A stretch of 64,000 nt of DNA from Fermentibacter sp963718745 [NCBI: Candidatus Fermentibacterota bacterium] (GTDB lineage: Bacteria > Fermentibacterota > Fermentibacteria > Fermentibacterales). Below are positions 5,613 to 64,000 of the stretch, in pieces. The notes beneath the pieces are model-generated. The model was given only the letters and a program-made list of their open reading frames with translations. It was not told the DNA's origin and did no database searches. Every line of letters begins with the position of its first letter. Position 1 is the first letter of the stretch. The stretch covers positions 620,001 to 684,000 of the forward strand of contig OY970370.1 in NCBI GenBank assembly GCA_963718745.1, written 5' to 3'. Made by a program: the position numbers and the translations under genes.

Positions 5613-5820
5613 GATCTCTCCTTCCTGAATGGTGGGCATGCATGCGGGCAAAGCGGTCATCCATCCGGGCGAATCAGCGGACATGCAGGGGTTCGGGGTG
5701 GCATGACCATGCGGTTTCAACATCGGCCATGGCCGGGTCTTCGTCAACAAAGAAAGAGGAATGCATCCCGCCGCGGCGGATCATGATGGGCCGGCGACAT
5801 TCCCCCGGGCGCCCGACCCG

Positions 5821-48596: not shown

Positions 48597-49540
48597 TGCG
48601 ACCCTCCTGCAGGTTCGATCCAGGTGAAGCCCGCGGCGTCCATCCAGCCACCGGGCCGGGCGCCTGCGAAATCCATGGTTCCGAGGACGGACCTGGCCGC
48701 CTCGGCCGGGGCGAGCCCGTTCTCCAGAATGTTGTCGAGGTAGTAGAACTCGATGATGGCGCTGCCCGCCCAGTCGACGCTCTTCGTGTAGCCGGAGATG
48801 ATGAAGCCGTCCCGCCAGTCGCGCCGGGATGACATTATCTCCCCGGGGATGTTCCCGCCCATCACCAGGCAGCTCGAAAAATGGAGCATCGCCAGGTTGC
48901 GGCACGGTGCGAGGGCCGAAGCTATGGCACGGCCGTCCAGCATCTCGTCGGCAAGGGATATGCCTTCCTCCGTCGCGTGGCAGGAAATGAGCAGGCAGAC
49001 GCTCCCCGGGAGGGCTGCCGTCTCCAGTGCGAAGAGCTCGAGGTCCGACCTGTCATGGATGAACCTGTGCCTCACACTGACGCCCTCCACCCTGGCGAAG
49101 AAGGCATCGAGCATCTCTCCGAACGAGTATTCCGGTTCGGTCATGCCCGACTGCCATTCGGCCTCCAGGATGACCAGCCATCTCGAGTCGTCGTCTGCAG
49201 AGGCGGTCCTGCTCCCCTCCCAGGATGACCAGTTCTGAGATCCGGACGCCCTCCACTCGCCGGAGATGCCCGTCCCTCCGCCCACGAGATCGAACCAGCC
49301 TTCTCCAGTCGCTGACGGCTCGGTGTATGTGAAGACGAAGCGTCCCGAACCGTTCACCTCGCCCGCGACCGTGCATACGCCGCCGAAGAGGTAGTAGCCC
49401 GTGACCCGGGATCCGTCCTGTGTCAGGACCATCGTTCCATAGGTGGTCTCCCAGGTCCCCGAGAAATCCGGGACCGTCGATCCACAGGCGGCGGAAGGCA
49501 CCAGGACGGCAGCGAGAATCAGACCGCGCAGGCAGTTCAC
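48593..49540 (-). CDS. Lipoprotein with a caspase-like (CHAT/C11-type) domain
   Basis: 315 residues. A signal peptide ends PSAACGS, a possible lipobox with Cys19. Residues 25-110 form a Gly/Thr/Trp-rich beta domain (DFSGTWETTYGTMVLTQDG; GEWRASGSQNWSSW), like lipocalin-type repeats. From about 120 the pattern suits a caspase-haemoglobinase fold: WLVILEAEW at the first strand, VCLLISCHATEEG with a His near residue 190, and LAMLHFSSCLVMGGNIPGE with a Cys near 226, in the order His then Cys. Catalysis is inference. The start is GTG at 49540, overlapping the alaS stop. Confidence 0.6.
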   Translation of the reverse strand: MNCLRGLILAAVLVPSAACGSTVPDFSGTWETTYGTMVLTQDGSRVTGYYLFGGVCTVAGEVNGSGRFVFTYTEPSATGEGWFDLVGGGTGISGEWRASGSQNWSSWEGSRTASADDDSRWLVILEAEWQSGMTEPEYSFGEMLDAFFARVEGVSVRHRFIHDRSDLELFALETAALPGSVCLLISCHATEEGISLADEMLDGRAIASALAPCRNLAMLHFSSCLVMGGNIPGEIMSSRRDWRDGFIISGYTKSVDWAGSAIIEFYYLDNILENGLAPAEAARSVLGTMDFAGARPGGWMDAAGFTWIEPAGGSQ

Positions 49541-51324
49541 TCCAGCACCGCCCTTATCCTCCTGATGCCCTGGGACGAACTCTTCTCCGACTGTATCACG
49601 AACCTCCCCATCCCTCCCGTACGCTCCACATGAGGACCGCCGCAGATCTCCAGGGAGAAGTCCCCTATGCGGTAGACCTTCACCATCTCTCCGTACTTCG
49701 ACTTGAAGAGCCCTACCGCACCCAGCTCGGTCGCCCTCTCGACCGTCTCCTCGCTGAAGCTGACCGGCATGTCGGCCTCGATGGCCGCGTTGACGATCTT
49801 CTCGACAGCCGAGACCTGTTCTTCCGTCATGGGCGAGGGATGGCTGAAGTCGAACCTGAGCCTCTCGTGCGTGATGTTGCTGCCCTTCTGCTCCACGTGG
49901 GACCCCAGGACCTCCCTGAGCGCCCTGTGCAGGAGATGGGTCGCGGTGTGCAACCTAGTGACCATCTCGCTGTGGTCGGCGAGGCCCCCTCCGAACTTGC
50001 GGTCCAGACCGGCCCTGGACAGCTCCCTGTGCTTGTCCAGAGCCTGCCCGTAGCCCTCCAGGTCCACGTCGAGCCCGTTCTCGCGGGCGAGTTCGGAGGT
50101 GAACTCGACCGGGAAGCCGTACGTGTCGTACAACCGGAAGGCCACCCTGCCGGGGATCGTCCGCGAGGGGTTCCGGAGCAGGTTGGGAAGAAGCTTCTCG
50201 AACTCGCGCATCCCCGCCTGGAGGGTCTTCTCGAACTGCGACTCCTCCTTCTCGATCTCGCTCCTGATGAAGGCCCGGTTCCGGGACAGCCCGGGATGGG
50301 TTCCCGACTCGTTCTCGATCACGAGCCCGGCGAGGTCCGGAAGTACGGAACCCTCGATGCCGAGTTTCCGGGCGTGCCGGATGGCAAGACGGAGAAGGCG
50401 CCTGAGGACGTATCCCTGGTCGAGGTTGGAGGGCGGGACACCCATGTCGTCCCCGAGTATGTGGGTGGAGGTCCTGATGTGATCAGCCACTATGCGCATG
50501 GATCTGCGGGCTTCGTGGTCGGAGTCGGGATCGAGACCGGAAGCCTCCCGGAGGAATCCGAAGACCGGCTGGAAGAGCGGAATCTCGTAGACGCTCCCGG
50601 AGCCGTTCATCATCGCGACGGTCCTCTCGACCCCCATTCCGGTGTCGACATTCCTCTGGGCGAGAGGTTCGTATGTCCCTTCCCGGGTCTTGTTGTACTG
50701 CATGAAGACATCGTTCCAGACCTCGAAGTACTTCCCGCACCCGCACCCGGGGCGGCAACCCGGGCCGCATGGCGCTTTTCCCGTATCCATGAACATCTCC
50801 GTGTCCGGTCCGCACGGTCCTGTCAGACCAGCAGGCCCCCACCAGTTGTCGGAACGCCCCAGGAAGTGGATCCTCTCCGCGGGTATCCCCATCTCCTGCC
50901 AGATGGCGGCGGCCTCCTCGTCGGGCGGGACGAGATCGTCGCCCGCGAAGACGGTTACGCTGAGGCGGGATGGATCGAATCCGAGCCAGGAGGAGCCCGT
51001 GAGGAACTCGTGGCTCCAGGTGATGGCCTCGCGCTTGAAGTAGTCGCCGAGAGACCAGTTCCCGAGCATCTCGAAGAAGGTCAGGTGGGAGGGATCCCCG
51101 ACGCTGTCTATGTCACCCGTCCGGATGCACTTCTGGCAGTCTACGAGCCTGCGGCCCGAGGGGTGCCTGCCGCCCATGAGGTAGGGGACGAGCGGGTGCA
51201 TCCCGGCTGTAGTGAACAGCACGGTTGAGTCGTTCTCCGGTATGAGAGAAGCTCCGTCGATGCGCACATGGCTGCGCTTGACGAAGAAGTCAACGAACAG
51301 CGACCTGAGTTCGTCGGAAGTCAT
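49537..51324 (-). CDS. alaS: Alanyl-tRNA synthetase, short form lacking the C-terminal domain
   Basis: 595 residues instead of the usual 850-880. The class II catalytic core (LFTTAGMHPLVPYLMG near 36-51, HLTFFEMLGNWSLGDYFK near 80-97, NVDTGMGVER near 225-234) and the editing domain are present, with zinc ligands His459 and His463 (HTATH) and Cys561 and His565 (CGGPH, usually CGGTH). The chain stops at the end of the editing domain, so the DHHA1/C-Ala domain is absent. A Cys-rich insert CGPGCRPGCGCG lies near 186-197. It follows the ceramide acyltransferase gene by 21 nt, with GGAGG before its ATG. Confidence 0.93.
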   Translation of the reverse strand: MTSDELRSLFVDFFVKRSHVRIDGASLIPENDSTVLFTTAGMHPLVPYLMGGRHPSGRRLVDCQKCIRTGDIDSVGDPSHLTFFEMLGNWSLGDYFKREAITWSHEFLTGSSWLGFDPSRLSVTVFAGDDLVPPDEEAAAIWQEMGIPAERIHFLGRSDNWWGPAGLTGPCGPDTEMFMDTGKAPCGPGCRPGCGCGKYFEVWNDVFMQYNKTREGTYEPLAQRNVDTGMGVERTVAMMNGSGSVYEIPLFQPVFGFLREASGLDPDSDHEARRSMRIVADHIRTSTHILGDDMGVPPSNLDQGYVLRRLLRLAIRHARKLGIEGSVLPDLAGLVIENESGTHPGLSRNRAFIRSEIEKEESQFEKTLQAGMREFEKLLPNLLRNPSRTIPGRVAFRLYDTYGFPVEFTSELARENGLDVDLEGYGQALDKHRELSRAGLDRKFGGGLADHSEMVTRLHTATHLLHRALREVLGSHVEQKGSNITHERLRFDFSHPSPMTEEQVSAVEKIVNAAIEADMPVSFSEETVERATELGAVGLFKSKYGEMVKVYRIGDFSLEICGGPHVERTGGMGRFVIQSEKSSSQGIRRIRAVLE

Positions 51325-51345: not shown

Positions 51346-52473
51346 TTATAGGTTCTTGTCGTAGATTCTGTACGTCTTGTAGACGACCGTGTGCATCTCG
51401 TTCTCGAGGATGCTCCTGAGAGCATGGTTGTCCTCCAGCACCCAGGAGAGCTCGGCCCATGTCACTCCGGTCCGGAAGCCGTAATCGACCATCCTGGAGA
51501 TGATGAGGCTCTCCAGCCCGCATCCGCGCCACTTCTCGCGGACGGCGAGCAGGAGTACCCTCACTCCCTCGATCTTCATCCTGAAGGGGGGGACCTTCAG
51601 GGCGAGGACGGTCCTGAGGAGGCTGCCCCTTGCTTTCAGGAACGCCTTGTTGGCGTCGGGGAGCCCGACGGCGAAGGCCACTGCTCTGCCATCCTCGTAG
51701 ACGACCGGGGCAAGCCCCTCGACGAGCATCATGCTCAGATCCCTGGCCATCTGGCGGAACTCGGCGTCCGTCATCGGGACGAATCCCCAGTTCCTGCTCC
51801 AGCATTCGTTGTAGATGTCCATGAGTGTCAGGACATCCTCGTAGAGGTGTTTCCGCCTCACGGTCCTGACTTCGGCCCCGGTCCTGCGCTCGACGAGGCC
51901 GGCCAGCCTCCTCATCCTCTCCCAGCTGAACTTCTCCTTTTCGAGCAGATAGGCCAGGACGTCCTTCGATTTCCCGAAGCCTGATCTCTCCACATGGTCT
52001 GCATAATGGGGCGGATTGTAGGTCATCATCAGGACGGGGCTCCTGTCGAACCCGTCGATCAGGAGGCCGATCTCCTCGTTCGTCGAGAAGTTCATGGGGC
52101 CGCGCACCCTGTCCATCCCGCGCTCCCGCAGCCACCCCGAGGCGGTCTCGAAGAGAGCGTCGAAGACCTCCTGGTCGTCTACAGCCTCAAGGAAGCCGAA
52201 GAAGCCCGTGCGGTCGTGGTGGTAGTCGTTGTGCGCCCTGTTCGCGATGGCGCAGATCCGACCCAGGGTTCCGCCCGAGGAGTCCCTCGCGAGGAAGCAG
52301 GCCGTCTCTCCGTGCTGGTGGAAAGGGTGTCCGCGGGAGGGATCCAGCGTGAACTTCTGCATGCTCCTGATGGGAGCCACCCAGAGAGGATCGGATCGAT
52401 AGAGCCTGAACGGCAGCTCGATGAAGTCACGGTATCCGGCAGCATCCTCGACGGGTTCGATCCGCAGGGACAT
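51346..52473 (-). CDS. GNAT-fold acyltransferase, candidate bacterial ceramide synthase
   Basis: 375 residues. RLYRSDPLWVAPIRSMQKFTLDP and FFGFLEAVDDQEVFDALFETASGWLRERGMDRVRGPMNFSTNEEIGLLIDGFD belong to a family of two-domain GNAT-fold proteins usually labelled N-acetyltransferase. A Caulobacter GNAT-family enzyme (bCerS) N-acylates the SPT product, and this gene lies 12 nt downstream of an SPT gene on one transcript, so it is a strong candidate for that step. The name is by family plus context; the substrate is not proven. Confidence 0.68.
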   Translation of the reverse strand: MSLRIEPVEDAAGYRDFIELPFRLYRSDPLWVAPIRSMQKFTLDPSRGHPFHQHGETACFLARDSSGGTLGRICAIANRAHNDYHHDRTGFFGFLEAVDDQEVFDALFETASGWLRERGMDRVRGPMNFSTNEEIGLLIDGFDRSPVLMMTYNPPHYADHVERSGFGKSKDVLAYLLEKEKFSWERMRRLAGLVERRTGAEVRTVRRKHLYEDVLTLMDIYNECWSRNWGFVPMTDAEFRQMARDLSMMLVEGLAPVVYEDGRAVAFAVGLPDANKAFLKARGSLLRTVLALKVPPFRMKIEGVRVLLLAVREKWRGCGLESLIISRMVDYGFRTGVTWAELSWVLEDNHALRSILENEMHTVVYKTYRIYDKNL

Positions 52474-52485
52474 CTCTGCGCCCCG

Positions 52486-53673
52486 TCAGCCGATCAGACC
52501 GAAACGGCGGCCCACCCGCTCGAAGATCTCGAGTGCCCTGTCGATCATCTCGTCCGTGTGGGTGGCCATGTAGCTCGTCCTGAGCATGGCCCGGTCCGGA
52601 GGGACGGCGGGGCTGACGACCGGGTTCGTGAACACGCCTTCCTGGTCGAGAGCCTGCCAGATCCTGAAGGTCAGGAAGCTGTCGCCGATGATGATGGGAA
52701 CGATCGGGGCCTCGGAGTTGCCCACGTTGAAACCCATCGCCTTGAGCCCGTCTCTCGACCTCCTGGCCGCACTGTGCATCCGGACGAGCAGCTCCGGCTG
52801 CTCCTCGAGTATCTCCAGGGCTGCCATCACGGTCGCTACCGAGGCGGGGGGAAGGCTTGCGGAGAAGATCTCGGTGCGCGCCTCGTGCTGGATGTAGTCT
52901 ATGACCTTGTCCTCGCCGGCGGCGAAGCCGCCGATGCTGGCGAAGGACTTGCTGAAGGTCCCGACCTGGAGGTCGACTCCGGCCTCGCAGTCGAAATGTT
53001 CCCCGGTTCCGCGCCCGTGGGCACCCATCACACCGACGCCGTGGGCGTCATCCACCATCACGCGGGCTCCGTGCTTCGCCGCGAGTCTCACGATCCCGCC
53101 GAGATCGGCCAGATCGCCCTCCATGCTGAAGACGCCGTCGGTAATGATCATCGCCGGACCCGCGACGCGTTCGAGCAGCTGGCCCAGGTGATCGATGTCG
53201 TTGTGCCGGTACTTCACGACTCTCGAATAGCTCATCCTGGTTCCGTCGATTATCGAGGCATGCACGGACCGGTCGACGAAGAGCAGTTCGTCCTTCTGCC
53301 CCAGGGCGCCGATCACGCCGAGGTTGGTCTGGAACCCGGTGCTGAAGGTGACGACGCGCTCACGCCCCAGGAACCTGGCCAGCCTCTCCTCCAGTTCGAC
53401 ATGGAGGTCCAGGGTGCCGTTGAGGAACCGGCTCCCGGTGCAGCCAGTCCCGTACTTGCCGATGGCTTCGGCCGATCTGGCCATCACGAGCGGATGGTTC
53501 GTCAGGCCGAGGTAATTGTTGGAGCCCAGCATGATTACGCTGTGCCCCTCGATCTCCATGACGGGACCGACCTGCCCGCTGAGAGGCTTGAAGTATGGGT
53601 AGAGGCCCATCTTCTTGACCTCGTCGACCCGGGTGTAGTCGAAGCATTTCCTGAAAATGTCGGGACGAGTCAT
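52486..53673 (-). CDS. spt: Serine palmitoyltransferase-like alpha-oxoamine synthase
   Basis: 395 residues, PLP-dependent. It would condense serine and an acyl-CoA or acyl-ACP to 3-ketosphinganine. Features closest to bacterial SPT are GLYPYFKPLSGQ near 23-34, MLGSNNYLGLTNHP near 48-61, GTGCTGSRFLNGTLDLHVELE near 75-95, DRSVHASIIDGTRMS near 134-148, and the PLP Lys242 in TFSKSFASIGG. BioF and KBL relatives share the fold but not the GSRFLNGT-rich pattern so fully. It has a clear promoter and is divergent from an epimerase-type reductase gene. Confidence 0.87.
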   Translation of the reverse strand: MTRPDIFRKCFDYTRVDEVKKMGLYPYFKPLSGQVGPVMEIEGHSVIMLGSNNYLGLTNHPLVMARSAEAIGKYGTGCTGSRFLNGTLDLHVELEERLARFLGRERVVTFSTGFQTNLGVIGALGQKDELLFVDRSVHASIIDGTRMSYSRVVKYRHNDIDHLGQLLERVAGPAMIITDGVFSMEGDLADLGGIVRLAAKHGARVMVDDAHGVGVMGAHGRGTGEHFDCEAGVDLQVGTFSKSFASIGGFAAGEDKVIDYIQHEARTEIFSASLPPASVATVMAALEILEEQPELLVRMHSAARRSRDGLKAMGFNVGNSEAPIVPIIIGDSFLTFRIWQALDQEGVFTNPVVSPAVPPDRAMLRTSYMATHTDEMIDRALEIFERVGRRFGLIG

Positions 53674-53674
53674 A

Positions 53675-53703
53675 TTGATAGCACTCCCGCGTGACGGTAC
53701 ATG
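53675..53703 (+). promoter_or_regulatory. Candidate promoter for the epimerase/reductase gene
   Basis: TTGATA (53675-53680) and TACATG (53698-53703) are 17 nt apart on the plus strand. The -35 is good and the -10 is poor (three of six). It would give a short leader to the ATG at 53751 and would overlap the divergent spt promoter. Confidence 0.3.
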
Positions 53704-53710
53704 GCGGCAG

Positions 53711-53739
53711 ATTGTAAGCAGGCGGCGTAATCAAGTCAA
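53711..53739 (-). promoter_or_regulatory. Promoter of the spt operon
   Basis: On the minus strand TTGACT (53739-53734) and TACAAT (53716-53711) are separated by exactly 17 nt, each matching the sigma-70 consensus at five of six positions. Transcription would start near 53704, about 30 nt before the spt ATG, with GGGAG as ribosome site. Confidence 0.78.
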
Positions 53740-53750
53740 CGGAGCATGCG

Positions 53751-54680
53751 ATGCAAAAGGCTTTTGTGACCGGTGTGACAGGCTTCCTCGGAGGGCACCT
53801 CGCGCCTGTGCTGGCGCGCTGCGGCTGGGATGTGGGCTCCGTATGCAGGGGCAGCTCCGACACGAGCGGAGTCCCGGGGTGCTGCCGGATCGAGAGGATC
53901 GACATGCTCGACCCGGGATCCTACAGCGGATCCCTTGCCGGCTGTGATGCGATCTTCCATCTGGCGGGAGCCACTTCCGCGAGGAGCCGGGAGGCGTTCG
54001 ACAGGTCCAACGCGGCTGTCACGGCGGCGCTGCTCGAAGCAAGGCGCCTCTTCGCGCCGGAGGCCATGCTCGTGTACGTCTCCAGCCAGTCCGCAGGCGG
54101 ACCCTCCGGGGATCGGCCGATGACCCCGTACGGCGCGAGCAAGCTTCTTGCGGAGAGCCTGGTCCGGAAGAGCCGGGGATGGGTGATCGTGAGGCCGCCT
54201 GCGGTCTTCGGTCCCGGGGACGACGCGATGCTGCCTCTCTTCAGGCAGGCCGCCAGGGGGTTCTTCCTCTCCCCGACGGGGAGGGGCGGCTTCCCCCTGG
54301 TCTATGTAAAGGATCTTGCCGAGTTCCTGGCAGGGCTCCCGTCGGTCCCGGAGGTCGCGGGCAGGACCCTGGAGCCTTCATACGGGCGCTCCTTCGACTG
54401 GAGGGACATCCACGGCCTGCTCCAGGAGGCTGCCGGCCGGAGGGTGCTCCACCTGAGGGTACCTCCTCCCCTGGTGCTCTCGGCGGGATGGTTGTCAGGC
54501 ACCGTGGGCCGCTTCAGGGGAGCCTGCCCGGTGTTCGACCTCCACAAGAGCCGCGAGCTCCTGTCGAGGGGATGGAAAGTCACCGATCCTGCCGTCGTGG
54601 AGCTCACTGGATGGACCCCTGCGACACCCCCGGAACAGGCCTTCGCCAGCACCATGGCCTGGGCTCGTCAGCGCTTGTAG
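53751..54680 (+). CDS. NAD(P)-dependent epimerase/dehydratase-like reductase, candidate CerR
   Basis: 309 residues of the extended SDR family. KAFVTGVTGFLGGHLAPVLARCGWDVGSV at 3-31 holds the TGxxGFxG nucleotide site. FHLAGATSARS, YVSSQSAGGP and TPYGASKLLAESLVRKS near 124-140 include the YxxxK pair; VIVRPPAVFGPGDDAML follows. In Caulobacter an SDR of this kind (CerR) reduces the ceramide keto group, and this gene is divergent from spt with 77 bp between them. The role is inferred from context. GGAG lies 7 nt before the ATG. Its end overlaps the convergent gene by 13 bp. Confidence 0.7.
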   Translation: MQKAFVTGVTGFLGGHLAPVLARCGWDVGSVCRGSSDTSGVPGCCRIERIDMLDPGSYSGSLAGCDAIFHLAGATSARSREAFDRSNAAVTAALLEARRLFAPEAMLVYVSSQSAGGPSGDRPMTPYGASKLLAESLVRKSRGWVIVRPPAVFGPGDDAMLPLFRQAARGFFLSPTGRGGFPLVYVKDLAEFLAGLPSVPEVAGRTLEPSYGRSFDWRDIHGLLQEAAGRRVLHLRVPPPLVLSAGWLSGTVGRFRGACPVFDLHKSRELLSRGWKVTDPAVVELTGWTPATPPEQAFASTMAWARQRL

Positions 54681-55159
54681 CCGAAGCGCCTGAGGAGCTC
54701 CATCCGGGAGGAGACGTCCAGGGCGGTCTCGACCGCCAGGGGCGACTCCCCGTCGAGCACGCCGGCCACTCCGCCGCTCTCCCCGGATCTGGCCACGAGC
54801 ACCGTCACGGGGTTGGACGTGGCGCAGAATACCGTGCAGACCTCGGGTACCGCGCGAATGGCGGGAAGGACCTGGATCGGCCAGGCATCTCCGAGGACGA
54901 TCAGGAATACATGGCCGCAGCCGAGTCTCAGGATGTTGTCCTCGGCCACCGCCTTGAGTTCGGGATCGTTGCCTTCGCTCCTGACGAGCCTCGGACCGGA
55001 GGCTTCGGCGAAGGCCAGCCCGAACCTCGCGCCGGGGGCGGAGACGGACAAGGCTTCGTAGAGATCCTCCACGGTCTTGATGAAATGAGCCTGTCCCAGG
55101 ATGACGTTCGCCCCCCCGGGGAACGAGAGCGGAACAAGCTCCATCTTCAGTGCATCCAC
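54668..55159 (-). CDS. Adenosine-specific kinase family protein (DUF355)
   Basis: 163 residues matching the Adenosine_kin family (PF04008), described from archaea and thermophiles. The pattern is complete: KTVEDLYEALSVSAPGARFGLAFAEASGPRLVRSEGND near 28-65, RLGCGHVFLIVLGDAWPIQVLPAIRAVPEVCTVFCATSNPVTVLVA near 78-123 and GVAGVLDGESPLAVETALDVSSRMELLRRFGYKR at the end. The role is proposed as adenosine kinase, but physiology is little known. It lies 43 nt downstream of gatD on the same strand, so both may be transcribed together. Confidence 0.88.
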   Translation of the reverse strand: MDALKMELVPLSFPGGANVILGQAHFIKTVEDLYEALSVSAPGARFGLAFAEASGPRLVRSEGNDPELKAVAEDNILRLGCGHVFLIVLGDAWPIQVLPAIRAVPEVCTVFCATSNPVTVLVARSGESGGVAGVLDGESPLAVETALDVSSRMELLRRFGYKR

Positions 55160-56653: not shown

Positions 56654-58162
56654 CTAGTATCTTTTCCTGGCGGTAGCCGGAGGGATCTCCAGCAGCCTGC
56701 GGTAGTTGGCGACAGTCCTTCGCTTCACCAGGAGCCCCCTGGCCCTGAGAAGCGCCGACAGCTCGTCGTCGGAAAGGGGATTCGACGGATCCTCCCCGTC
56801 CACGATCCTCCGCAGCTCCTCCTTGGCGGTCCTGGTGGAGACGTCCTCCGCTCCGGCGAGCCTCCTGCTGAAGAAGAAGGCGAGTTCGCTCACCCCCTGG
56901 GGCGAATCCAGATACTTGCCGTTTATTGCGCGGCTGATCGTCGACTGGTTCCTTCCCAGCGCCTCCGCGACCTGCTGCAGGGTCAGGGGTCTGAGCGAAT
57001 CGACCCCGTTGTCGAAGTAGTCCTTCTGGTAGTCGGCCAGGAACTGCGCTATGCGGAGCACGGTATCCTGGCGCTGCTGTATGGAGCGGAGGAAGTGGCT
57101 TGCCCTCGTGTACTTGTCCTTGACGTACTCCACTGCCTCCGGGTCGCTGTGGGGCGATTCGAGGACCCTGCGGTTCCGCTCCGAGATGACGAGGGTCGGG
57201 AACCTGGAGTCGTTGAGGATGGCTATGTACGCCCCCTCCACCCTGATTATGGAAATGTCCGGGATCACGATCGAGTTGGTGTCGGGAGAGAAGTCCGAAC
57301 CGGGAAAGGGGTTCAGGTCCCTGATCCTCTCGACGGCGTCCTGGATGTCCCTCGCGCTCACCCTGAGGGCACGGGCGAGGACTGGATACTGACGCTCCGG
57401 GAGTATGTCGAAGAACTCGTCTATCAGGCGGTACTCGAGGCTGTCCGCAGGCGTTCCCCTCTGGTCCAGCTGGGCGATGAGCGCCTCCCTGACTGTATAG
57501 CACCCCACTCCGGTAGGTTCCAGCGACCTGACGAGCTCGACGGCTCTTTCGAGAAGGGTCCGGTCGCCCTCCCACCCGGCCTCGAAGTTCTCCCTGCCCA
57601 TCGAGATGAGCCCGTGCCTGTCGAGCGAGTAGACGACATATCTCACGGCCTCCTCCATCTCGGGACCGGGTCTCTGGTCAGCGGCCTGGGAGAGGAGATG
57701 CTCCGAGAGAGTAGTCTTCACCACGTACTCCGGCCGCCACTGCTCCTCGAAGGAGCCTCCGCGGCCCTCGCGGGAGTATTCCTCGAACTCGGCCAGGAAT
57801 TCGAGGTGATCCTCCTTCTCGTCATCCCTCCGGGGTTCGGCGTCTTCGTCCTCGCCTGCCGCCGGGGCTTCGACCGCGGCCTCGCCATCGGAAGGCGGGG
57901 GGTCGGCCTGATCCCCGTCACCGGATTCCCCGGCAGTGTCCTCGGCGGAAACAGCTCCGTCCTCACCGGGGGTCTGTTCGGCCTGGGAGTCGTCCTGATC
58001 GATCTCGAGGAGCGGGTTCTCGTTGAGCTCCTGCTCGATGAGCTTCTCCAGCTCGACGGAGGGCATCTGGAGCAGCTCGAGCGACTGCTGCACGACAGGG
58101 TTCAGGACCAGGCGGTGAGTCAGCTGGAGGGAGGGTACCTGCCTGAGCTCGGGCCGGTTCAT
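56654..58162 (-). CDS. rpoN: RNA polymerase sigma-54 factor
   Basis: 502 residues. Region I (QLTHRLVLNPVVQQSLELLQMPSVELEKLIEQELNENPLLE) is at the N-terminus. An acidic, Pro/Ala-rich region II of about 80 residues follows. The core-binding and HTH regions include LTLQQVAEALGRNQSTISRAINGKYLDSPQG near 411-441, and the RpoN box is KRRTVANYRRLL near 480-491 (usually ARRTVAKYR). It directs transcription from -24/-12 promoters with enhancer activators. The ATG overlaps the lptB stop by 1 nt (TGATG); lptB-rpoN is a widely conserved pair. Confidence 0.95.
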   Translation of the reverse strand: MNRPELRQVPSLQLTHRLVLNPVVQQSLELLQMPSVELEKLIEQELNENPLLEIDQDDSQAEQTPGEDGAVSAEDTAGESGDGDQADPPPSDGEAAVEAPAAGEDEDAEPRRDDEKEDHLEFLAEFEEYSREGRGGSFEEQWRPEYVVKTTLSEHLLSQAADQRPGPEMEEAVRYVVYSLDRHGLISMGRENFEAGWEGDRTLLERAVELVRSLEPTGVGCYTVREALIAQLDQRGTPADSLEYRLIDEFFDILPERQYPVLARALRVSARDIQDAVERIRDLNPFPGSDFSPDTNSIVIPDISIIRVEGAYIAILNDSRFPTLVISERNRRVLESPHSDPEAVEYVKDKYTRASHFLRSIQQRQDTVLRIAQFLADYQKDYFDNGVDSLRPLTLQQVAEALGRNQSTISRAINGKYLDSPQGVSELAFFFSRRLAGAEDVSTRTAKEELRRIVDGEDPSNPLSDDELSALLRARGLLVKRRTVANYRRLLEIPPATARKRY

Positions 58163-58899
58163 CAGAGCCTGAACCTCTCTCCGAGATAGATCTTCCTCGC
58201 CTCCGGGTCGTCCGCGAGCTCCTGGGCGGAACCCGAGATGAGGACCCTCCCGTCGAACATGATGTACGCCCTGTCCGTTATGGCGAGGGTGTCCCTGACG
58301 TTGTGGTCTGTGATGAGAACGCCGAGGCCCGTCCTGCTGAGGTTCCTGACGATACCCTGTATCTCGGCCACGGCTATCGGATCTATCCCCGCGAAGGGCT
58401 CGTCCAGAAGGAGGAACGACGGTTTCGTCACGAGGGCGCGGGCGATCTCGACGCGCCTGCGCTCGCCTCCCGAGAGCGTATAGGCCTTCTGGTCGGCGAG
58501 TTTCGTGATCCCCAGCGCGTCCATGAGCATGTCGCGCCTCTCCAGCCTCTCGGATCTCTTCAGGTGCAGGGTCTCGAGAATGCTCAGGAGGTTGTCGGAA
58601 ACAGTCATCTTCCTGAACACGCTCGATTCCTGGGGCAGATAGCCGATCCCGAGACGCGCCCTGCGGTACATCGGCAGCTTCGTTATCGCAGCCCCGTCCA
58701 GGTGCACCTCTCCATCGGTAGGCCTGATGAAGCCGACTATCATGTAGAAGGTCGTAGTCTTGCCGGCTCCGTTGGGACCCAGCAGGCCGACGATCTCCCC
58801 CCTGGAAACGGTCAGGCTCACCCCGTTCACGACCCGCCTCCTGCGGTACTCCTTCACGAGGTCCACGGTGCTCAGGGTGCTCGAACCGCTGGAGGTCAT
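58162..58899 (-). CDS. lptB: LPS export ABC transporter ATP-binding protein LptB
   Basis: 245 residues. Walker A is GPNGAGKTTT at 41-50, followed by the Q-loop in YLPQESSVFRKMTV, signature LSGGERRRVEIARAL near 142-156, Walker B LLLDEPFAGIDP near 161-172, and the H-switch in LITDHNVRDTLAITDRAYIM near 194-213. It powers LPS extraction from the inner membrane with LptF/G, which are not in view. ATG at 58899 overlaps the lptA stop by 4 nt. Confidence 0.97.
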   Translation of the reverse strand: MTSSGSSTLSTVDLVKEYRRRRVVNGVSLTVSRGEIVGLLGPNGAGKTTTFYMIVGFIRPTDGEVHLDGAAITKLPMYRRARLGIGYLPQESSVFRKMTVSDNLLSILETLHLKRSERLERRDMLMDALGITKLADQKAYTLSGGERRRVEIARALVTKPSFLLLDEPFAGIDPIAVAEIQGIVRNLSRTGLGVLITDHNVRDTLAITDRAYIMFDGRVLISGSAQELADDPEARKIYLGERFRL

Positions 58900-59951
58900 C
58901 TTCCGTCTCCGCCGATATATGAGTATGTGCCCGACACGGATCCGGTGACCGTGACGGATTCGATGGAACCATCCACGTATCTGACCAGCAGGTGCTGGCC
59001 CGAGACCGTGTTGCTCTCCTCCCGGGACGCAGCCTCTCCGCCGGCTCTGTAGACGAGTGTGACGGAGTTCTCCAGATCGATGGAGTCCGGCTCGCCGCCC
59101 GAGAACGAGAAGAAGGCCTTCTCCGACGAGAACCACGTCTCGGAGGGGGGGGTCTCCTGCTGATCGAGCAGGTGTCCGTCGGCCGCACCCTCTATCCGGA
59201 TGCTCCTGATCTCACCCTCGACGAGTTCCGCGCGTATCCAGTTGCCGGAGAGCTCGCCGTCGGTGCTCGTGACGACCGGACCGCCCAGCATCTCGACCGA
59301 TTCGTCCCTCCCGGAGAAGACCAGGAATTCCGAAACGGCGACGACGTCTTCCGATGGATAACGCAGCACGGCGTTGCCCTGGGCTTCCGCCCGGTCGGAG
59401 TCCGGGAGGAACTCGAGCCGATCGGCGGTTATGATGAGGCTGTCGCCCTCCTCGAGCCTCCGGAGCATCGGCTCCGATGTTACGAAGATGCTCCCCCTGT
59501 CGCTGTCGTACATGGCATAGCGCCCCGTCACGTCGCCGAGCCACGGTCCGGTCATGTGGACATCCCCCCTGGCGACGGCCTTTCCAAGGAGTCTGTACCA
59601 GGTCACCTCGTCGGCTCGCAGGACATTCTCCCCGTCTGTGAGGGCGACCCGCCCGGTGAGGACTGCGGTGCCTGCGGCCCTGTCGTAGACGAGCATGTCG
59701 GAGGAGGCGGAGAGCGTGTCGGATTCTATGTACACTTCACCTCTGAAGAGCGCCCTTCCGGCCTGCTGCCACACCCTGCCCGAATCAGAGGTGACCGTGA
59801 TCTCTCCGTCCGTGACTTCGACGTCGCCCGAAAGATCGATCACGAGTTCGCCATCTTCCGACTCGGTGCCCGAAGCGCTGGTGGCGCTGACCGTGAAGAC
59901 CCCGGCGAGGGCGGCGGAAGCGGCCGTCAGGAGGAGGACGCTATTCCTCAA
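58896..59951 (-). CDS. lptA: LptA/OstA-domain LPS transport periplasmic protein
   Basis: 351 residues, longer than E. coli LptA (185). A signal peptide (MRNSVLLLTAASAALAGVFTVSATSASG) precedes tandem beta-jellyroll strands: ITVTSDSGRVWQQAGRALFRGEVYIESDTLSASSDMLVYDR and VLTGRVALTDGENVLRADEVTWYR, with further repeats to about 330. The repeat pattern and the position between lptC and lptB identify it as the periplasmic bridge for LPS. The extra length may add more jellyroll units. Its start overlaps the lptC end by 11 nt. Confidence 0.88.
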   Translation of the reverse strand: MRNSVLLLTAASAALAGVFTVSATSASGTESEDGELVIDLSGDVEVTDGEITVTSDSGRVWQQAGRALFRGEVYIESDTLSASSDMLVYDRAAGTAVLTGRVALTDGENVLRADEVTWYRLLGKAVARGDVHMTGPWLGDVTGRYAMYDSDRGSIFVTSEPMLRRLEEGDSLIITADRLEFLPDSDRAEAQGNAVLRYPSEDVVAVSEFLVFSGRDESVEMLGGPVVTSTDGELSGNWIRAELVEGEIRSIRIEGAADGHLLDQQETPPSETWFSSEKAFFSFSGGEPDSIDLENSVTLVYRAGGEAASREESNTVSGQHLLVRYVDGSIESVTVTGSVSGTYSYIGGDGR

Positions 59952-60494
59952 TTCTCACTTCCCCGCTGTAGACGGCCGTGAAGCTCTCCCTGACGTCGAC
60001 GCCTGCAGCCGAGCCCAGACTCCTGTCGAGCGCGACACCGCGCCCGGTCAGGTATGTGGTCCCGAGGCTCTCCGGCATTTCGAGGACGGCTACGCAGTCG
60101 GTCATGAAGACGCCGAGGCTGTCGCACCAGACCAGTTCGGGCGAGGTGAGTATCCGCCCCTCCGACGTCTCCACTCTTGCGGATCCCCATGCCCGGAGGA
60201 GGGCGCCGTTGTCGAGGACCTCTCCGGAATCCGACGTGAGCATCGAAGCGGGTGCGTCTCCCTCGTACATTATCAGTTTGACTCCCCACATGAGGAGCGT
60301 GCTGTCCTGTTCGTGGAAGATGCCTCCATCCCCCTCGAGCCTCCAGTCCCTCCCGGCTCCGGCGGCCTGAGTGAGCGAAAAGACGCCCAGTTCCTGGGTC
60401 TGTCCCGATTCGTCCGTATAGGTCCGGGACTGCTCAGCGCAGCCCAGGACAGCCAGGAGGACGGCGGCACCAGCGCTCGTGAAACCAGATCCAC
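59941..60494 (-). CDS. lptC: LptC-like lipoprotein, start region apparently frameshifted
   Basis: The protein has a lipobox (LLAVLGC) and LptC-type strands (ELGVFSLTQAAGAGRDWRLEGDGGIF; LTSDSGEVLDNGALLRAWGSARVETSEGRIL). LptC hands LPS to LptA. No ATG, GTG or TTG lies in frame near the signal; only ACG at 60480 or a far ATG at 60624 inside lpxL. If one G is added in the GTGCCGCC segment near 60463-60470, a GTG at 60494 gives MDLVSRALVAAVLLAVLGC, a perfect lipoprotein signal. I therefore give 60494 as the likely true start and mark a probable one-base deletion or assembly error. Confidence 0.65.
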
Positions 60495-61348
60495 TGCGAG
60501 GGGTCCGTCCTGATCCAGCCCTCGATGATCGAGTTGAGCCGCGCCGTGAGGCGGATGTACCCGTCCTCCCCGGGGAAGTCCCCGGTGTCGAGCGGCTCCT
60601 CGATGACCAGAAGATGAGATCCATCCTGCCTCCGGGCTATGTGGAGCGGTACCACCGGAATCCGGAACCTGGCGGCCAGCCTGGCCGGGCCGACGGGGGT
60701 GAGCGCCGGGATCCCGAAGAAATCAACGAACTCGCACTCCACGGCTGTAGTGTCCTGGTCGATGAGAATACCCACAGCCGTGTTCCCGCGCAACATCTCG
60801 ATCAGCCGCCTGACGTCGGAAGCCCTGTCCAGGGCTGCCACTCCGTGCATCGTGCGCAGCCTTGCGAGACTTCGCCCCGCCCCTGACTCCGGGAGCTTCC
60901 TGCCGATGATTGCGGTCTTGTGGCCCATGAGGATCACCGATCGCGGGATCAGCTCCCAGGCTCCGTAGTGGGCGGTTATGCAGATCGCCCCTCTGCCGGA
61001 TTCGAGTGCCTCTGCGAGGTTCTCCGCCCCGGTCACCGAGACCGATTCCAGGAAGGCGGCGTCATCAGAACCCGACAGCCGTATGAAATCGAAAAGCGAG
61101 AGGAGCATGTTCCGGTAGACGGCCGAAGGTTCGACGTCGAGGCCTGCGGGGCGGAGGATGTTCCTCCGGTGCCGGTCGATCAGAGTGTTCGCCCTGGAGG
61201 GGAGCCGGGCCGCCAGGTGCGCGGCACACAGGCAGAGGAGGCGGATCAGCCTGCGCGGGAGCACTCGGGCTGTGAAGAAGAGGAGCCACACGGCCGGGGC
61301 GGACAGAAGATGGCGCAATGCTCGGAATGGAAGCCTTCGCGAGGGCAT
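60434..61348 (-). CDS. lpxL: Lipid A biosynthesis acyltransferase (LpxL/HtrB family)
   Basis: 304 residues. An N-terminal hydrophobic helix (APAVWLLFFTARVLP) is followed by the HX4E acyltransferase motif HYGAWE at 127-132 and the GKLP-like segment IIGRKLPES. DRASDVRRLIEMLRGNTAVGILIDQD near 175-200 and the end WIWFHERWCRRPPG fit the family closely. It adds a secondary acyl chain to Kdo-lipid A at the inner membrane. It follows kdsD by 11 nt and overlaps lptC, all in one operon. Confidence 0.92.
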   Translation of the reverse strand: MPSRRLPFRALRHLLSAPAVWLLFFTARVLPRRLIRLLCLCAAHLAARLPSRANTLIDRHRRNILRPAGLDVEPSAVYRNMLLSLFDFIRLSGSDDAAFLESVSVTGAENLAEALESGRGAICITAHYGAWELIPRSVILMGHKTAIIGRKLPESGAGRSLARLRTMHGVAALDRASDVRRLIEMLRGNTAVGILIDQDTTAVECEFVDFFGIPALTPVGPARLAARFRIPVVPLHIARRQDGSHLLVIEEPLDTGDFPGEDGYIRLTARLNSIIEGWIRTDPSQWIWFHERWCRRPPGCPGLR

Positions 61349-61359
61349 CCGGGGCCGGC

Positions 61360-62316
61360 CTAGTAGATGCCGGCGCGCATCAGGTCGTGGAGGAAGACGA
61401 GGCCGACGGGTCTCGATTCCTCGTCGACCACGACGAGGCTGGTGATGCCCTTCTGCTCCATCCTGGCGAGGGCGGCGGAGGCGGATTCGCCAGGGGAGGC
61501 GGATGCGGGCGCCCTCCTGAGTACGTCGGAGAGCAGCAGCGAGTGGATGTCCGCCCGGTCCTTCATCAGCCTGCCGAGGTCGCCGTAGACGAAGATCCCG
61601 CAGAGAGCGCCGGACGGATCGACGGAGAAGCAGACTCCCCTGTGCCTCGTCATGGTTTCCACGGCGTCAGGGAGGGGGGTATCCCCGGGGATCGAAGGCA
61701 GAGGAGGCGGGACCATCAGGTCGGACACGCGGGTGAGCAGCTTCCTGCCCAGCATCCCGCCCGGATGGACATCGGCGAAATCGGACGGAGAGAAGTCCCC
61801 GGCCTTGAGGAGCGCCATCGCGAGAGCGTCACCAAGCACGAGCATGGCCGTGGTGCTCGCGGTCGGTGCGAGATTGTAGGGACAGGCCTCCGCGAGATCC
61901 GGGAGGCGCAGCACGATGTCCGACGCTCTGCCGATCGTAGAATCCGGACGGCAGATCGAAACCATCCTGATCCCGAGTCTCCTGAAGCTCGGCAGCAGTG
62001 CTGCAAGCTCCGGAGTGTTTCCGCTCCGCGAAAGAACCAGGGCCGTGTCTTCCGGGGTCACGAGACCAAGGTCACCGTGCACGGCTTCGGCTGGATGGAG
62101 GAAGAATGCCGGAGTGCCCGTGCTGGTCATGGTGGCGGCTATCTTCCTCGCGATGCAGCCGGACTTGCCCATCCCGGAGACGACTATCCTCCCGCGGGTC
62201 GCGTGCAGGATCTCCACTGCCCCGTCGAAGGACGGGCGGACGTTCTCCAGGGTTTCGTCCAGCCAGCGCCGCTCGATGGTGAAGACCCTTTCCGCTTCGG
62301 CCAGGAAACCGCTCAT
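61360..62316 (-). CDS. kdsD: Arabinose-5-phosphate isomerase
   Basis: 318 residues. The N-terminal SIS domain (RIVVSGMGKSGCIARKIAATMTSTGTPAFFLHPAEAVHGDLG near 43-84; LVLSRSGNTPEL near 93-104) is followed by two CBS domains (VSDLMVPPPLPSIPGDTPLPDAVETM and the C-terminal GITSLVVVDEESRPVGLVFLHDLMRAGIY). It makes arabinose-5-phosphate from ribulose-5-phosphate, the first Kdo step. ATG at 62316 overlaps the kdsC stop by 4 nt. Confidence 0.95.
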   Translation of the reverse strand: MSGFLAEAERVFTIERRWLDETLENVRPSFDGAVEILHATRGRIVVSGMGKSGCIARKIAATMTSTGTPAFFLHPAEAVHGDLGLVTPEDTALVLSRSGNTPELAALLPSFRRLGIRMVSICRPDSTIGRASDIVLRLPDLAEACPYNLAPTASTTAMLVLGDALAMALLKAGDFSPSDFADVHPGGMLGRKLLTRVSDLMVPPPLPSIPGDTPLPDAVETMTRHRGVCFSVDPSGALCGIFVYGDLGRLMKDRADIHSLLLSDVLRRAPASASPGESASAALARMEQKGITSLVVVDEESRPVGLVFLHDLMRAGIY

Positions 62317-62783
62317 TCGAGCCTGCCTTCGAGGTACATGTCCGCTATCTCCCTGACAGCGCCTCCGCCGCCAGGGTTTTCGGTCACGATCTGGCACTTC
62401 GATTTGACACTGTAGTGGGCATCGGCAGGGCAGGCCGGGAAACCGGCGATGTCGAGAGCGGGGATGTCCATCTGGTCGTCGCCCATGAAGAGAGCCTCCG
62501 AGGAGTCGATCCCAAGGAAGGAGCAGAGGTCCTCGAACGCCTTGCGCTTGTCCCTGCAGCCGAGGATCAGGAATGGGATGCCGAGATCCCTCGCTCTTCT
62601 CCGTGTGGACTCGAGGTCCCTGAAGGAGATCAGGGCGACCGAGACGCCCGCCTTGAGCAGAGCGATGATCCCTGCGCCGTCGCGGGCGTTGAACCTCTGA
62701 GATGCTCCGGCTGGGCCGTACTCCAGTGTGCCGTCGGTCAGGACGCCGTCGACGTCGAATGCGAAGAGCCTGATGGATCTCAT
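62313..62783 (-). CDS. kdsC: 3-deoxy-D-manno-octulosonate-8-phosphate phosphatase
   Basis: 156 residues, a compact HAD phosphatase without cap. FAFDVDGVLTDGTLEY near 7-22 holds the nucleophile; RFNARDGAGIIALLKAGVSVALIS near 30-53, the conserved Lys in GCRDKRKAFEDL near 75-86, and MGDDQMDIPAL near 99-109 complete the HAD set. It removes phosphate from Kdo-8-P. ATG at 62783 lies 1 nt after the kdsA stop. Confidence 0.94.
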   Translation of the reverse strand: MRSIRLFAFDVDGVLTDGTLEYGPAGASQRFNARDGAGIIALLKAGVSVALISFRDLESTRRRARDLGIPFLILGCRDKRKAFEDLCSFLGIDSSEALFMGDDQMDIPALDIAGFPACPADAHYSVKSKCQIVTENPGGGGAVREIADMYLEGRLE

Positions 62784-62784
62784 A

Positions 62785-63564
62785 TCACCCCGGCGCCTCC
62801 CAGTGCTCGAGAGAGCCCTCCACGAGCATCCTGGACTCCGCTTCGGAAAGGATCGTCTCGCTGTCGCTCGGAGATTCCGCAGGTCTCGGATGCGCCTCGA
62901 AGAAAAGCCCGTCCACTCCCCAGGCTGCGGCCGCCCTCGCAAGGGGCAGCGCGAAACGCTTCTCGCCTCCGCTCGCCGTCCCCGTCGAGCCGGGTTTCTG
63001 GAGCGAGTGGGTGACGTCCAGGAGCACTGCGTCGCAGAGGCCGGACATGATGGAGAGAGACCGGAAATCCACGACCAGGTCGCCATAGCCGAAGAATGCC
63101 CCTCTCTCGGTCAGCATGACCTCGGGACACCCCCTCGTCCGAAGCTTCTCTACAGCACCCTCCATGTTGAGGGGGTTCATGAACTGGCCCTTCTTGACGT
63201 TCACCGGCAGCCCTGCGCTTCCCGCGGCCTCGAGCAGGGATGTCTGCCTGCACAGGAATGCCGGTATCTGGAGGATGTCGACAATCCCCGAGACGGCCTC
63301 GACCTGGTTCGGCTCGTGGACATCCGTCGTCACTCTGATTCCGAAGCGGTTCCTGATGAGGGAGAGGATTCGGAGGCCGCTCTCCAGGCCGACGCCTCTG
63401 AACGAGCCGGCCGAAGTCCTGTTGTCCTTGAGGAAGGAGGCCTTGAAGACCCATTCGACTCCGGGTCTGTCCGACAGGATCGAGTCGAGCATCGCGGCCG
63501 TCTCCAGAGCGGTCTCCTCCGAGTCCAGAACGCACGGTCCGGCTATGAAGAGCTTCCCGATCAA
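62785..63564 (-). CDS. kdsA: 3-deoxy-8-phosphooctulonate (Kdo-8-P) synthase, metal-dependent type
   Basis: 259 residues. IAGPCVLDSEETA near 7-19 has the Cys that marks the metal-dependent class (Asn in E. coli). KASFLKDNRTSAGSFRGVGLESGLRIL near 42-68, TTDVHEPNQVEA, LPVNVKKGQFMNP and MLTERGAFFGYGDLVVDFRSL follow. It joins PEP and arabinose-5-phosphate. The TTG at 63564, with GGAGGGAG just upstream, overlaps the kdsB stop (TTGA); the frame stays open upstream but inside kdsB. The lack of a KPRTS motif separates it from the DAHP synthase at 36.9-37.7 kb. Confidence 0.93.
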   Translation of the reverse strand: MIGKLFIAGPCVLDSEETALETAAMLDSILSDRPGVEWVFKASFLKDNRTSAGSFRGVGLESGLRILSLIRNRFGIRVTTDVHEPNQVEAVSGIVDILQIPAFLCRQTSLLEAAGSAGLPVNVKKGQFMNPLNMEGAVEKLRTRGCPEVMLTERGAFFGYGDLVVDFRSLSIMSGLCDAVLLDVTHSLQKPGSTGTASGGEKRFALPLARAAAAWGVDGLFFEAHPRPAESPSDSETILSEAESRMLVEGSLEHWEAPG

Positions 63565-64000
63565 GGCAGCTCCCTCCGGACCCTGTCGAGATCCTCCGGC
63601 GTGTCGATGCCGAACCCCTCGAAGGGTCCCTCGACCACTACCATCTCGGTACCTCCGCACAGCCAGGCGAGCTGCTCGAGCCTCTCGACCGAGGAGAGCG
63701 GGCATGGACGGGCGGTCATGCAGGAGTCGAACGAACCGGGGCTGAAGCAGTAGACCCCGACGTGCTCCAGAAATGCCTTCGATCCGTGCGGGATCGGGGA
63801 GCGCGAGAAGTATAGAGCTCTCCCGTCGCACCGCACCGCGACCTTGACAGAGGATTCGAGTCGAGCCCTCTCCGCGGAGCAGGGCCTGGCGAGAGTCACG
63901 ACCCTGGAGGGCGAGGGTTCCACCGAGGTCAGTGCACGAATCCAGGACGGCCCGGCAAAGGGCTCGTCGCCCTGGAGGTTGATGATCCGGGAACCCGGCC
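63561..64000 (-). CDS. kdsB: CMP-Kdo synthetase, C-terminal part (start off window)
   Basis: About 146 residues are visible, and the 5' end is outside. IINLQGDEPFAGP near the edge is the conserved NVQGDEP motif of KdsB. SPIPHGSKAFLEHVGVYCFSPGSF and CPLSSVERLEQLAWLCGG follow, and the end FGIDTPEDLDRVRRELP is typical. It activates Kdo as CMP-Kdo. It is the most upstream visible gene of the kdsB-rpoN run. Confidence 0.92.
   Translation of the reverse strand, partial: PGSRIINLQGDEPFAGPSWIRALTSVEPSPSRVVTLARPCSAERARLESSVKVAVRCDGRALYFSRSPIPHGSKAFLEHVGVYCFSPGSFDSCMTARPCPLSSVERLEQLAWLCGGTEMVVVEGPFEGFGIDTPEDLDRVRRELP

What the first reader, a model, noticed from the sequence alone, without database searches (positions are those of the whole stretch)
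51346..54680. Compact ceramide (sphingolipid) locus in an LPS-making bacterium
An SPT-like oxoamine synthase, a GNAT-fold acyltransferase 12 nt downstream, and a divergent SDR reductase 77 bp away reproduce the three-enzyme bacterial ceramide set (Spt, bCerS, CerR) known from Caulobacter. A clear sigma-70 promoter (TTGACT-17-TACAAT) drives spt. The same window has a full Kdo/LpxL/Lpt operon, so the organism may carry both sphingolipids and LPS. Enzyme roles are from family and context.
Basis: partly seen in the sequence, partly recalled or inferred. Interest (0 to 1): 0.72.

Follow-up and report, generated by a model that had tools for sequence, protein, structure and literature searches.

The report
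Ceramide gene set in Fermentibacterota
Three neighbouring genes in an uncultured bacterium look like the known bacterial kit for making ceramide-type membrane lipids; the kit is found in most genomes of this little-studied phylum alongside genes for ordinary lipopolysaccharide, which extends a known pathway rather than revealing a new one.

Summary
The window is from Ca. Fermentibacterota. Of 42 genomes held for the phylum, 38 have the SPT orthologue, 38 the GNAT and 38 the SDR, always in this arrangement where partners occur together. A tree puts the SPT with known Spts, apart from KBL, BioF, ALAS and the same phylum's paralogues. The residue separating Spt (Ala) from the sulfonolipid enzyme SulA (Lys) is Ala272. 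The GNAT falls with SPT-linked GNATs, including E. coli YghO (listed in print as counterpart of Caulobacter CC_1154), apart from a stand-alone paralogue. The SDR is the least specific part. LpxC occurs in 37 of 42 genomes, so LPS is co-encoded phylum-wide, as in Caulobacter. No AcpR was found near spt, and no second LptF/G pair in the genomes, unlike Rhodobacteria clusters. A Black Sea survey already reports Spt-like genes in 38 phyla. New member of a known kind; roles are inferred and no lipid has been seen.

The parts
52486..53673 (-). Spt-type alpha-oxoamine synthase (serine palmitoyltransferase), 395 aa; N52, H138, D208, H211, K242 (PLP lysine), A272, R365
   Evidence: PF00155; best NCBIfam model NF047600 at 492 bits, below its 640 cut-off; best solved structure S. 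multivorum Spt at 390 bits; tree; active-site columns
51346..52473 (-). bCerS/YghO-type tandem-GNAT N-acyltransferase, 375 aa
   Evidence: PF00583 at 22 bits, cut-off 20.7; 32.4% over 383 aligned positions to BL21 YghO; tree; model pLDDT 84 with tandem-GNAT folds as best matches
53751..54680 (+). CerR-like extended SDR (NAD-dependent epimerase family), 309 aa; TGxxGFxG, S111/S112, Y127, K131
   Evidence: PF01370; conserved columns across 22 rows; model pLDDT 86.6, top fold matches an oxidoreductase (gox2253), a putative epimerase and nucleotide-sugar epimerases/reductases, with complex-I subunits also listed
53711..53739 (-). sigma-70-like promoter TTGACT-17-TACAAT facing spt-GNAT
   Evidence: pattern kept in 14 of 21 spacers
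53674..53750 (.). 77-bp divergent spacer between spt and the SDR gene
   Evidence: divergence kept in 37 of 37 genomes that hold both genes
56654..63998 (-). neighbouring kdsB(partial)-kdsA-kdsC-kdsD-lpxL-lptC?-lptA-lptB-rpoN block (LPS context, not part of the ceramide set)
   Evidence: an LpxL homologue lies within 8 of the 20 other loci compared, several of which end early
49537..51324 (-). alanyl-tRNA synthetase (595 aa form) that follows the GNAT gene; syntenic, possibly on the same transcript, unrelated in function
   Evidence: NF002436 at 911 bits, cut-off 529; conserved order

Best explanation
The locus encodes a de novo (dihydro)ceramide pathway. SPT condenses serine with a fatty acyl thioester, using PLP bound to K242, to give 3-oxo-sphinganine. 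The tandem-GNAT protein adds the second acyl chain to the amino group. The SDR reduces the 3-keto group with NAD(P)H. A promoter facing spt drives spt and the GNAT gene together. The acyl donor is inferred to be acyl-CoA or housekeeping acyl-ACP, because no AcpR/AasR pair was found near. The product is inferred to be an outer-membrane lipid made besides LPS. Shown here: family, phylogeny, active-site residues, conserved gene order, co-occurrence with LpxC. Inferred: substrates, order of the last two steps, head group, location, promoter use.
For: SPT lies with Spts, apart from KBL (KBL plus paralogues 98/92) and BioF, and apart from the same phylum's KBL-like and BioF-like paralogues. A272 matches Spt: Ala in 12 of 12 Fermentibacterota SPT rows, window included, and in 9 of 10 SPT references; Lys in the cysteate enzyme 28eh; Asn or Thr in 9 of 9 KBL, BioF and ALAS rows and in 15 of 15 Fermentibacterota paralogues (SulA Lys281 rule from PMC9304779). 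PLP Asp and His columns are invariant in 50 of 50 rows. GNAT groups with SPT-linked GNATs at 100/100. SPT, GNAT and SDR are in 38, 38 and 38 of 42 genomes. The same trio stands in one cluster in Rubrobacter, Streptomyces, Aureispira, Klebsiella and E. coli records; Aureispira has the same divergent layout. The Spt of E. coli BL21 makes 3-oxo-sphinganine by published assay (PMC9386255, passages); the E. coli row in the tree is 99.7% identical to it.
Against: The SPT is under the curated cut-off of all 12 NCBIfam models it matched, including its best one, NF047600 (492 against 640). The node joining Spts to the exclusion of CFAT is 94/96, just under the star threshold. The SDR is only 26% identical to the E. 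coli cluster SDR, its top structural matches are mostly sugar epimerases and reductases, and it belongs to a large family. No Caulobacter sequence was compared directly. No head-group gene was recognised in the neighbourhood with the queries used. No lipid data exist.
Confidence: 0.86

Rival explanations
1. The set makes sulfonolipids: the oxoamine synthase uses cysteate (SulA/CFAT type) and the GNAT protein and SDR complete a capnine-based lipid.
For: Same enzyme superfamily; [quoted passage not shown]
Against: That residue is Ala in 12 of 12 Fermentibacterota SPT rows, window included, and Lys in CFAT 28eh; CFAT branches apart at 100/98 with Spirosoma and a Planctomycete.
Confidence: 0.04
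2. The synthase uses alanine or glycine and the product is a 1-deoxysphingolipid-type or other N-acyl amino-ketone lipid.
For: PMC11334938 reports 1-deoxysphingolipids in euxinic water (abstract) and says Spt can use alanine (section 20).
Against: Active-site residues checked are those of S. multivorum Spt; no residue that sets alanine preference was tested, so this is weak evidence.
Confidence: 0.08
3. A KBL/BioF-type enzyme beside an unrelated acetyltransferase and a sugar epimerase; no lipid pathway.
For: NCBIfam scores for BioF and KBL models (373, 369 bits) are not far below the Spt ones; the SDR resembles sugar epimerases.
Against: Trees and residue 272; separate KBL-like and BioF-like genes exist in the same phylum and in several of the same genomes; constant linkage of the three genes.
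Confidence: 0.02

Closest known systems
Caulobacter crescentus ceramide genes spt (CC_1162), CerS candidate CC_1154, CerR candidate CC_1164, and the E. coli BL21 yghO cluster
   Same: Spt, YghO-type GNAT and epimerase-family SDR together; Caulobacter also makes LPS (PMC11324152 passages)
   Different: Those clusters carry a specialised ACP and acyl-ACP synthetase (PMC9386255); the E. coli and Sphingomonas records also carry an LptF/LptG pair in the cluster. AcpR and LptF/G were not found near the Fermentibacterota set, and LptF/LptG matches in the phylum fit one pair per genome.
Aureispira anguillae plasmid pAUEa SPT-GNAT with divergent SDR, and Rubrobacter radiotolerans SPT-GNAT-SDR
   Same: Three genes with no ACP or acyl-AMP ligase annotated beside them; the Aureispira layout (SDR divergent from SPT-GNAT) is the window's
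   Different: SPT identity 44% (Aureispira) and 50% (Rubrobacter), GNAT 32% and 39%; other phyla
Spt-like genes of 38 phyla in the Black Sea metagenome (PMC11334938)
   Same: Spt with bCerS and CerR homologues on one scaffold in uncultured bacteria
   Different: No word beginning 'Fermentibacter' occurs in its main text; its supplement was not read, so inclusion there is possible

Membership tests
Bacterial serine palmitoyltransferase (Spt clade of the oxoamine synthases) | Places with known Spts, not with KBL, BioF or ALAS | tested here: met
   50-row tree, Spt+CFAT side 98/90, Spt proper 94/96 (just under the star threshold), Fermentibacterota clade 100/99
Bacterial serine palmitoyltransferase (Spt clade of the oxoamine synthases) | PLP and substrate residues (N52, H138, D210, H213, K244, R367 by S. 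multivorum numbering) and Ala at the SulA Lys281 position | tested here: met
   (one search had read the neighbour of D210; one search read D210 itself, window D208); residue roles from PMC9304779
Bacterial serine palmitoyltransferase (Spt clade of the oxoamine synthases) | Serine + acyl thioester activity | not testable with these tools
   needs an assay
NF047600 (Bacteroidota-type Spt equivalog, NCBIfam) | Score over the curated cut-off of 640 bits | tested here: not met
   492 bits; so not filed in this curated equivalog
SulA / cysteate-C-fatty acyltransferase | Lys at the Lys281 position | tested here: not met
   Ala272
bCerS / YghO N-acyltransferase | Full-length similarity to an SPT-linked YghO-type GNAT and placement in that clade | tested here: met
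   32.4% over 383 aligned positions to BL21 YghO, E 1.75e-68; clade 100/100
bCerS / YghO N-acyltransferase | Tandem GNAT fold (expected from the family; recalled, not from a solved bCerS) | tested here: met
   model pLDDT 84.0; best VIA match 7q3a_A, a tandem-repeat GNAT, Z 23.2, rmsd 3.6, 305 aligned
bCerS / YghO N-acyltransferase | Direct orthology to Caulobacter CC_1154 | not tested
CerR | Epimerase-family SDR with glycine motif and catalytic Tyr/Lys, linked to spt | tested here: met
CerR | Phylogenetic distinction from other extended SDRs | tested here: inconclusive
   the SDR tree held only SPT-linked SDRs; closest outside matches are generic
CerR | Periplasmic location, reported for Caulobacter CerR (PMC11087976, passages) | not testable with these tools
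   no localisation data; the N-terminus starts directly with the Rossmann motif
Rhodobacterial sphingolipid cluster | Specialised AcpR and AasR beside spt | tested here: not met
   tblastn at E 1e-3: no AcpR hit in the window or the 20 other loci; AasR queries match only acyl-adenylate genes about 13 and 24 kb from spt in the window and one place in L012. AcpR is short and could be missed.

The most novel reading that the evidence does not exclude
Fermentibacterota make ceramide lipids as a core lipid of the phylum and move them with the one Lpt machine they have, shared with LPS: the ceramide genes sit beside the kds-lpxL-lptAB block in the window and in several relatives, and no second LptF/LptG pair, which accompanies Rhodobacteria clusters, was found.
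Probability: 0.1. Interest if true: 0.55.

Novelty: new member of a known kind. Interest (0 to 1): 0.32.

Why it matters
It adds an uncultured phylum to the likely ceramide makers, on phylogeny and residues and not just on best hits, with the gene arrangement kept over deep divergence (SPT identity down to about 64% in orthologues), which suggests the lipid matters to these cells. It also gives a compact three-gene set without a neighbouring AcpR/AasR pair for heterologous work, and a group in which ceramide genes and LPS genes coexist without a second Lpt set, useful for asking how bacterial sphingolipids reach the outer membrane (stated as not known in PMC11324152, passage).

Tried and rejected
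Rejected: KBL/BioF/ALAS identity of the SPT; SulA identity; the idea that any GNAT of this family is bCerS. A second, stand-alone copy occurs at 27-32% identity in 24 of 42 genomes (by eye); no SPT or SDR match lies in the 11 loci of it that were scanned; the neighbours sampled in three loci include transporters, a radical SAM and a DAHP synthase gene and several without a Pfam match; it branches with Phocaeicola and Prevotella proteins away from the SPT-linked group. It was kept apart in all counts.

Led nowhere: PDB sequence search with the GNAT protein (one hit at E 0.025); NCBIfam on the GNAT protein (none); tRNA scan (none); paper searches for Fermentibacter with sphingolipid (0 papers), for two of Fermentibacter/ceramide/SPT/Hyd24-12 (1,677 papers; one listed, none of which holds a Fermentibacter or Hyd24-12 term), and Fermentibacterota with lipopolysaccharide (1 paper, seen as listing only). 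The paper of Stankeviciute et al. 2022 is not held and is known here only as others cite it. Foldseek and VIA-align lists contain many generic GNATs and SDRs; they support the fold, not the function.

Limits of the trees: rows were chosen by hand (SPT tree: 11 of the phylum's orthologues besides the window, 15 paralogues; GNAT tree: 10 orthologues besides the window, 10 of 24 stand-alone copies). The programme warned of long end branches (E. coli and Acinetobacter BioF, Phocaeicola in the SPT tree; Aureispira, Sphingomonas, Rubrobacter in the GNAT tree, with a possible long-branch meeting of Aureispira and the stand-alone copies) and of rows with unusual composition; the trees were not rebuilt without them. 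Rows dropped: SPT copies split in two frames or cut by contig ends (L001, L017, L022, L043, L066, L082); the Sphingomonas SDR, cut at the locus edge.

Counting rules: phylum counts use SPT identity of 60% or more (plus G002, a 40-residue tail at a contig end), GNAT of 45% or more, SDR E of 1e-30 or less, counted by eye. Absent: all three in G018, G026, G037; SPT and GNAT in G019; SDR in G002. LpxC is absent from G014, G018, G019, G025, G026 and LptF/LptG from G010, G014, G024, G041. Completeness of these genomes is not told, so absence may be fragmentation. Corrected on checking: one search read the residue next to the PLP aspartate; one search read the right one (D208).
Full report
What is there. 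The source is Ca. Fermentibacterota: 17 of the 19 loci found with the GNAT protein in named genomes are labelled Fermentibacteria, Fermentibacter, Fermentibacteraceae, Aegiribacteria or Hyd24-12, the nearest at 81 and 79% identity; the other two are an Eisenbacteria (44%) and a Planctomycetota genome (31%).

Is it more than chance. The order SDR(divergent)-SPT-GNAT-AlaRS recurs in the Fermentibacterota loci long enough to show it. In the 42 genomes held for the phylum, 38 have an SPT orthologue, 38 the GNAT and 38 the SDR. SPT and GNAT are adjacent in 38 of 38; the SDR is divergent and adjacent in 37 of 37 genomes that hold both (by eye from the same calls). The promoter TTGACT-17-TACAAT is kept as TTGACT-17-TAnnnT in 14 of 21 spacers; the seven without it are L007 and six loci of another lineage, so the promoter is not phylum-wide. 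These sequences are related, so the 14 are not independent.

The SPT. Its best NCBIfam model is the Bacteroidota-type Spt (492 bits), but that is below the cut-off of 640, and BioF and KBL models follow at 373 and 369 bits, so family scores alone do not decide. The best solved structures are S. multivorum Spt at 390 bits, then T. thermophilus KBL/BioF at 318. A 50-row maximum-likelihood tree is clearer: the window protein lies in a Fermentibacterota clade (100/99) within the Spt side; KBL and BioF lie elsewhere; and the 15 paralogues sampled from the phylum fall with KBL (11) or beside BioF and ALAS (4). The node that holds the Spts together without CFAT has 94/96 support, just short of the star threshold, and Spt references are not one clean clade, because one Planctomycete protein falls with the cysteate enzyme. 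The residue reported to separate SulA from Spt (Lys281 against Ala, PMC9304779, abstract and passages) is Ala272 here, Ala in 12 of 12 Fermentibacterota SPT rows (window included) and in 9 of 10 Spt references, Asn or Thr in all nine KBL, BioF and ALAS rows and in all 15 paralogues, and Lys in CFAT 28eh and the Planctomycete. Ala is not exclusive to proven Spts: two unassigned plasmid proteins (Priestia, Phocaeicola) have it too. The PLP-binding Asp208 and His211 are invariant in all 50 rows, as expected for the whole superfamily.

The GNAT protein. Pfam sees only a GNAT domain just over threshold. Relatives occur in 44 plasmid records, 42 of them over at least 80% of the query. Of 11 such records examined, an SPT match lies within the fetched stretch in eight: E. 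coli, Klebsiella, Streptomyces, Rubrobacter, Aureispira, Sphingomonas, Diaphorobacter, Nonomuraea (in Nonomuraea the SPT is split over two frames); in Roseomonas it is about 10 kb away on the same plasmid (NZ_CP034925); in Prevotella and Phocaeicola none lies within 6 kb. Identity to BL21 YghO is 32.4% over 383 aligned positions; PMC9386255 lists YghO (ECD_02850) as the counterpart of Caulobacter CC_1154 (passage). In a 33-row tree the SPT-linked proteins (21 rows, window included) separate at 100/100 from the stand-alone Fermentibacterota copy and the Prevotella and Phocaeicola proteins. AlphaFold gives a tandem GNAT (pLDDT 84.0) whose best match is a tandem-repeat GNAT (Z 23.2, rmsd 3.6, 305 aligned); N-myristoyltransferases, which take long acyl chains, are among the listed matches (Z about 15-16), but so are many acetyltransferases with higher Z.

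The SDR. It is an epimerase-family SDR with TGxxGFxG, Ser111/112, Tyr127 and Lys131 conserved in 22 of 22 rows and 26.2% identity to the BL21 cluster SDR. Its top fold matches are an oxidoreductase (gox2253), a putative epimerase and nucleotide-sugar epimerases and reductases, with complex-I subunits also listed; PMC11087976 says CerR has homology to the complex-I protein NDUFA9 (passage), and a sequence search also listed NDUFA9-type chains. This is the least specific of the three assignments, and no broad SDR tree was made.

How it likely works. Spt condensation, N-acylation by the GNAT protein, and 3-keto reduction by the SDR; the order of the last two steps is disputed even in Caulobacter (PMC11087976 and PMC11324152, passages). 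PMC11324152 states that Bacteroidetes Spts use acyl-CoA while Rhodobacteria Spts prefer acyl-AcpR. Nineteen queries from the E. coli, Sphingomonas and Roseomonas clusters (AcpR, AasR, LptF/G, desaturases, head-group and sugar-transfer genes) were run against the window and 20 other loci. The only matches were AasR queries to acyl-adenylate genes about 13 and 24 kb from spt in the window and to one place in L012, and a Sphingomonas ATP-binding protein to two places in L016. The window's acyl-adenylate genes could supply acyl-CoA. So the set resembles the Aureispira and Rubrobacter layout more than Caulobacter's.

LPS. The adjacent block is kdsB-kdsA-kdsC-kdsD-lpxL-lptC?-lptA-lptB-rpoN, with an LpxL homologue within 8 of 20 other loci. 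LpxC is found in 37 of 42 genomes and in 36 of the 38 with SPT. LptF/LptG matches fit one pair per genome in the 38 of 42 genomes with any; no genome shows a second pair, though four have none and several pairs are split by contig ends or frames. Both lipids in one organism is known from Caulobacter (PMC11324152).

Novelty. The pathway is known, and PMC11334938 (abstract, passages and section 20 seen) reports Spt-like proteins in MAGs of 38 phyla. No word beginning with Fermentibacter is in its main text, and no held paper joins Fermentibacter with sphingolipid, but the supplements were not read. I therefore call it a new member of a known kind.

Noticed in passing
L019:8761-11034 (SDR at 5290-6270): Planctomycetota locus whose SPT-like protein has Lys at the SulA Lys281 position and groups with the cysteate enzyme at 100/98, next to a bCerS-type GNAT (split in two frames) and an SDR: a candidate sulfonolipid-type set outside Bacteroidota.
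   Followed up: partly
G001:C80:10296-11354 and 23 other Fermentibacterota genomes (e.g. L057-L061, L063, L071-L073, L075, L076): Second, stand-alone bCerS-like tandem GNAT that branches with Phocaeicola and Prevotella proteins; function unknown, no SPT or SDR match in the loci scanned.
   Followed up: partly
window 55203-56591 (-): GatD of the type modelled from archaea (TIGR02153, 490 bits, cut-off 324) in a bacterium.
   Followed up: no
window 54668-55159 (-): Adenosine-specific kinase PF04008, found near the ceramide genes in many of the relatives.
   Followed up: no
window 49537-51324 (-): Short alanyl-tRNA synthetase (595 aa, NF002436) directly downstream of the GNAT gene, order kept in the relatives compared.
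   Followed up: no
window 27517-29262 (-) and 37746-39410 (-): Two acyl-adenylate (acyl-CoA/ACP synthetase-like) genes that match AasR queries; possible acyl-thioester suppliers. Not scanned against family libraries.
   Followed up: no
L084:3998-5212 (Priestia megaterium plasmid NZ_CP137804.1): SPT-like protein 51% identical to the window's, Ala at the diagnostic site, with no GNAT or SDR gene annotated within 4 kb.
   Followed up: partly
L053 / L115 (E. coli): The yghO-spt cluster is present over 80% or more of its length in 4022 of 5426 complete E. coli genomes, so ceramide genes are common in E. coli.
   Followed up: partly
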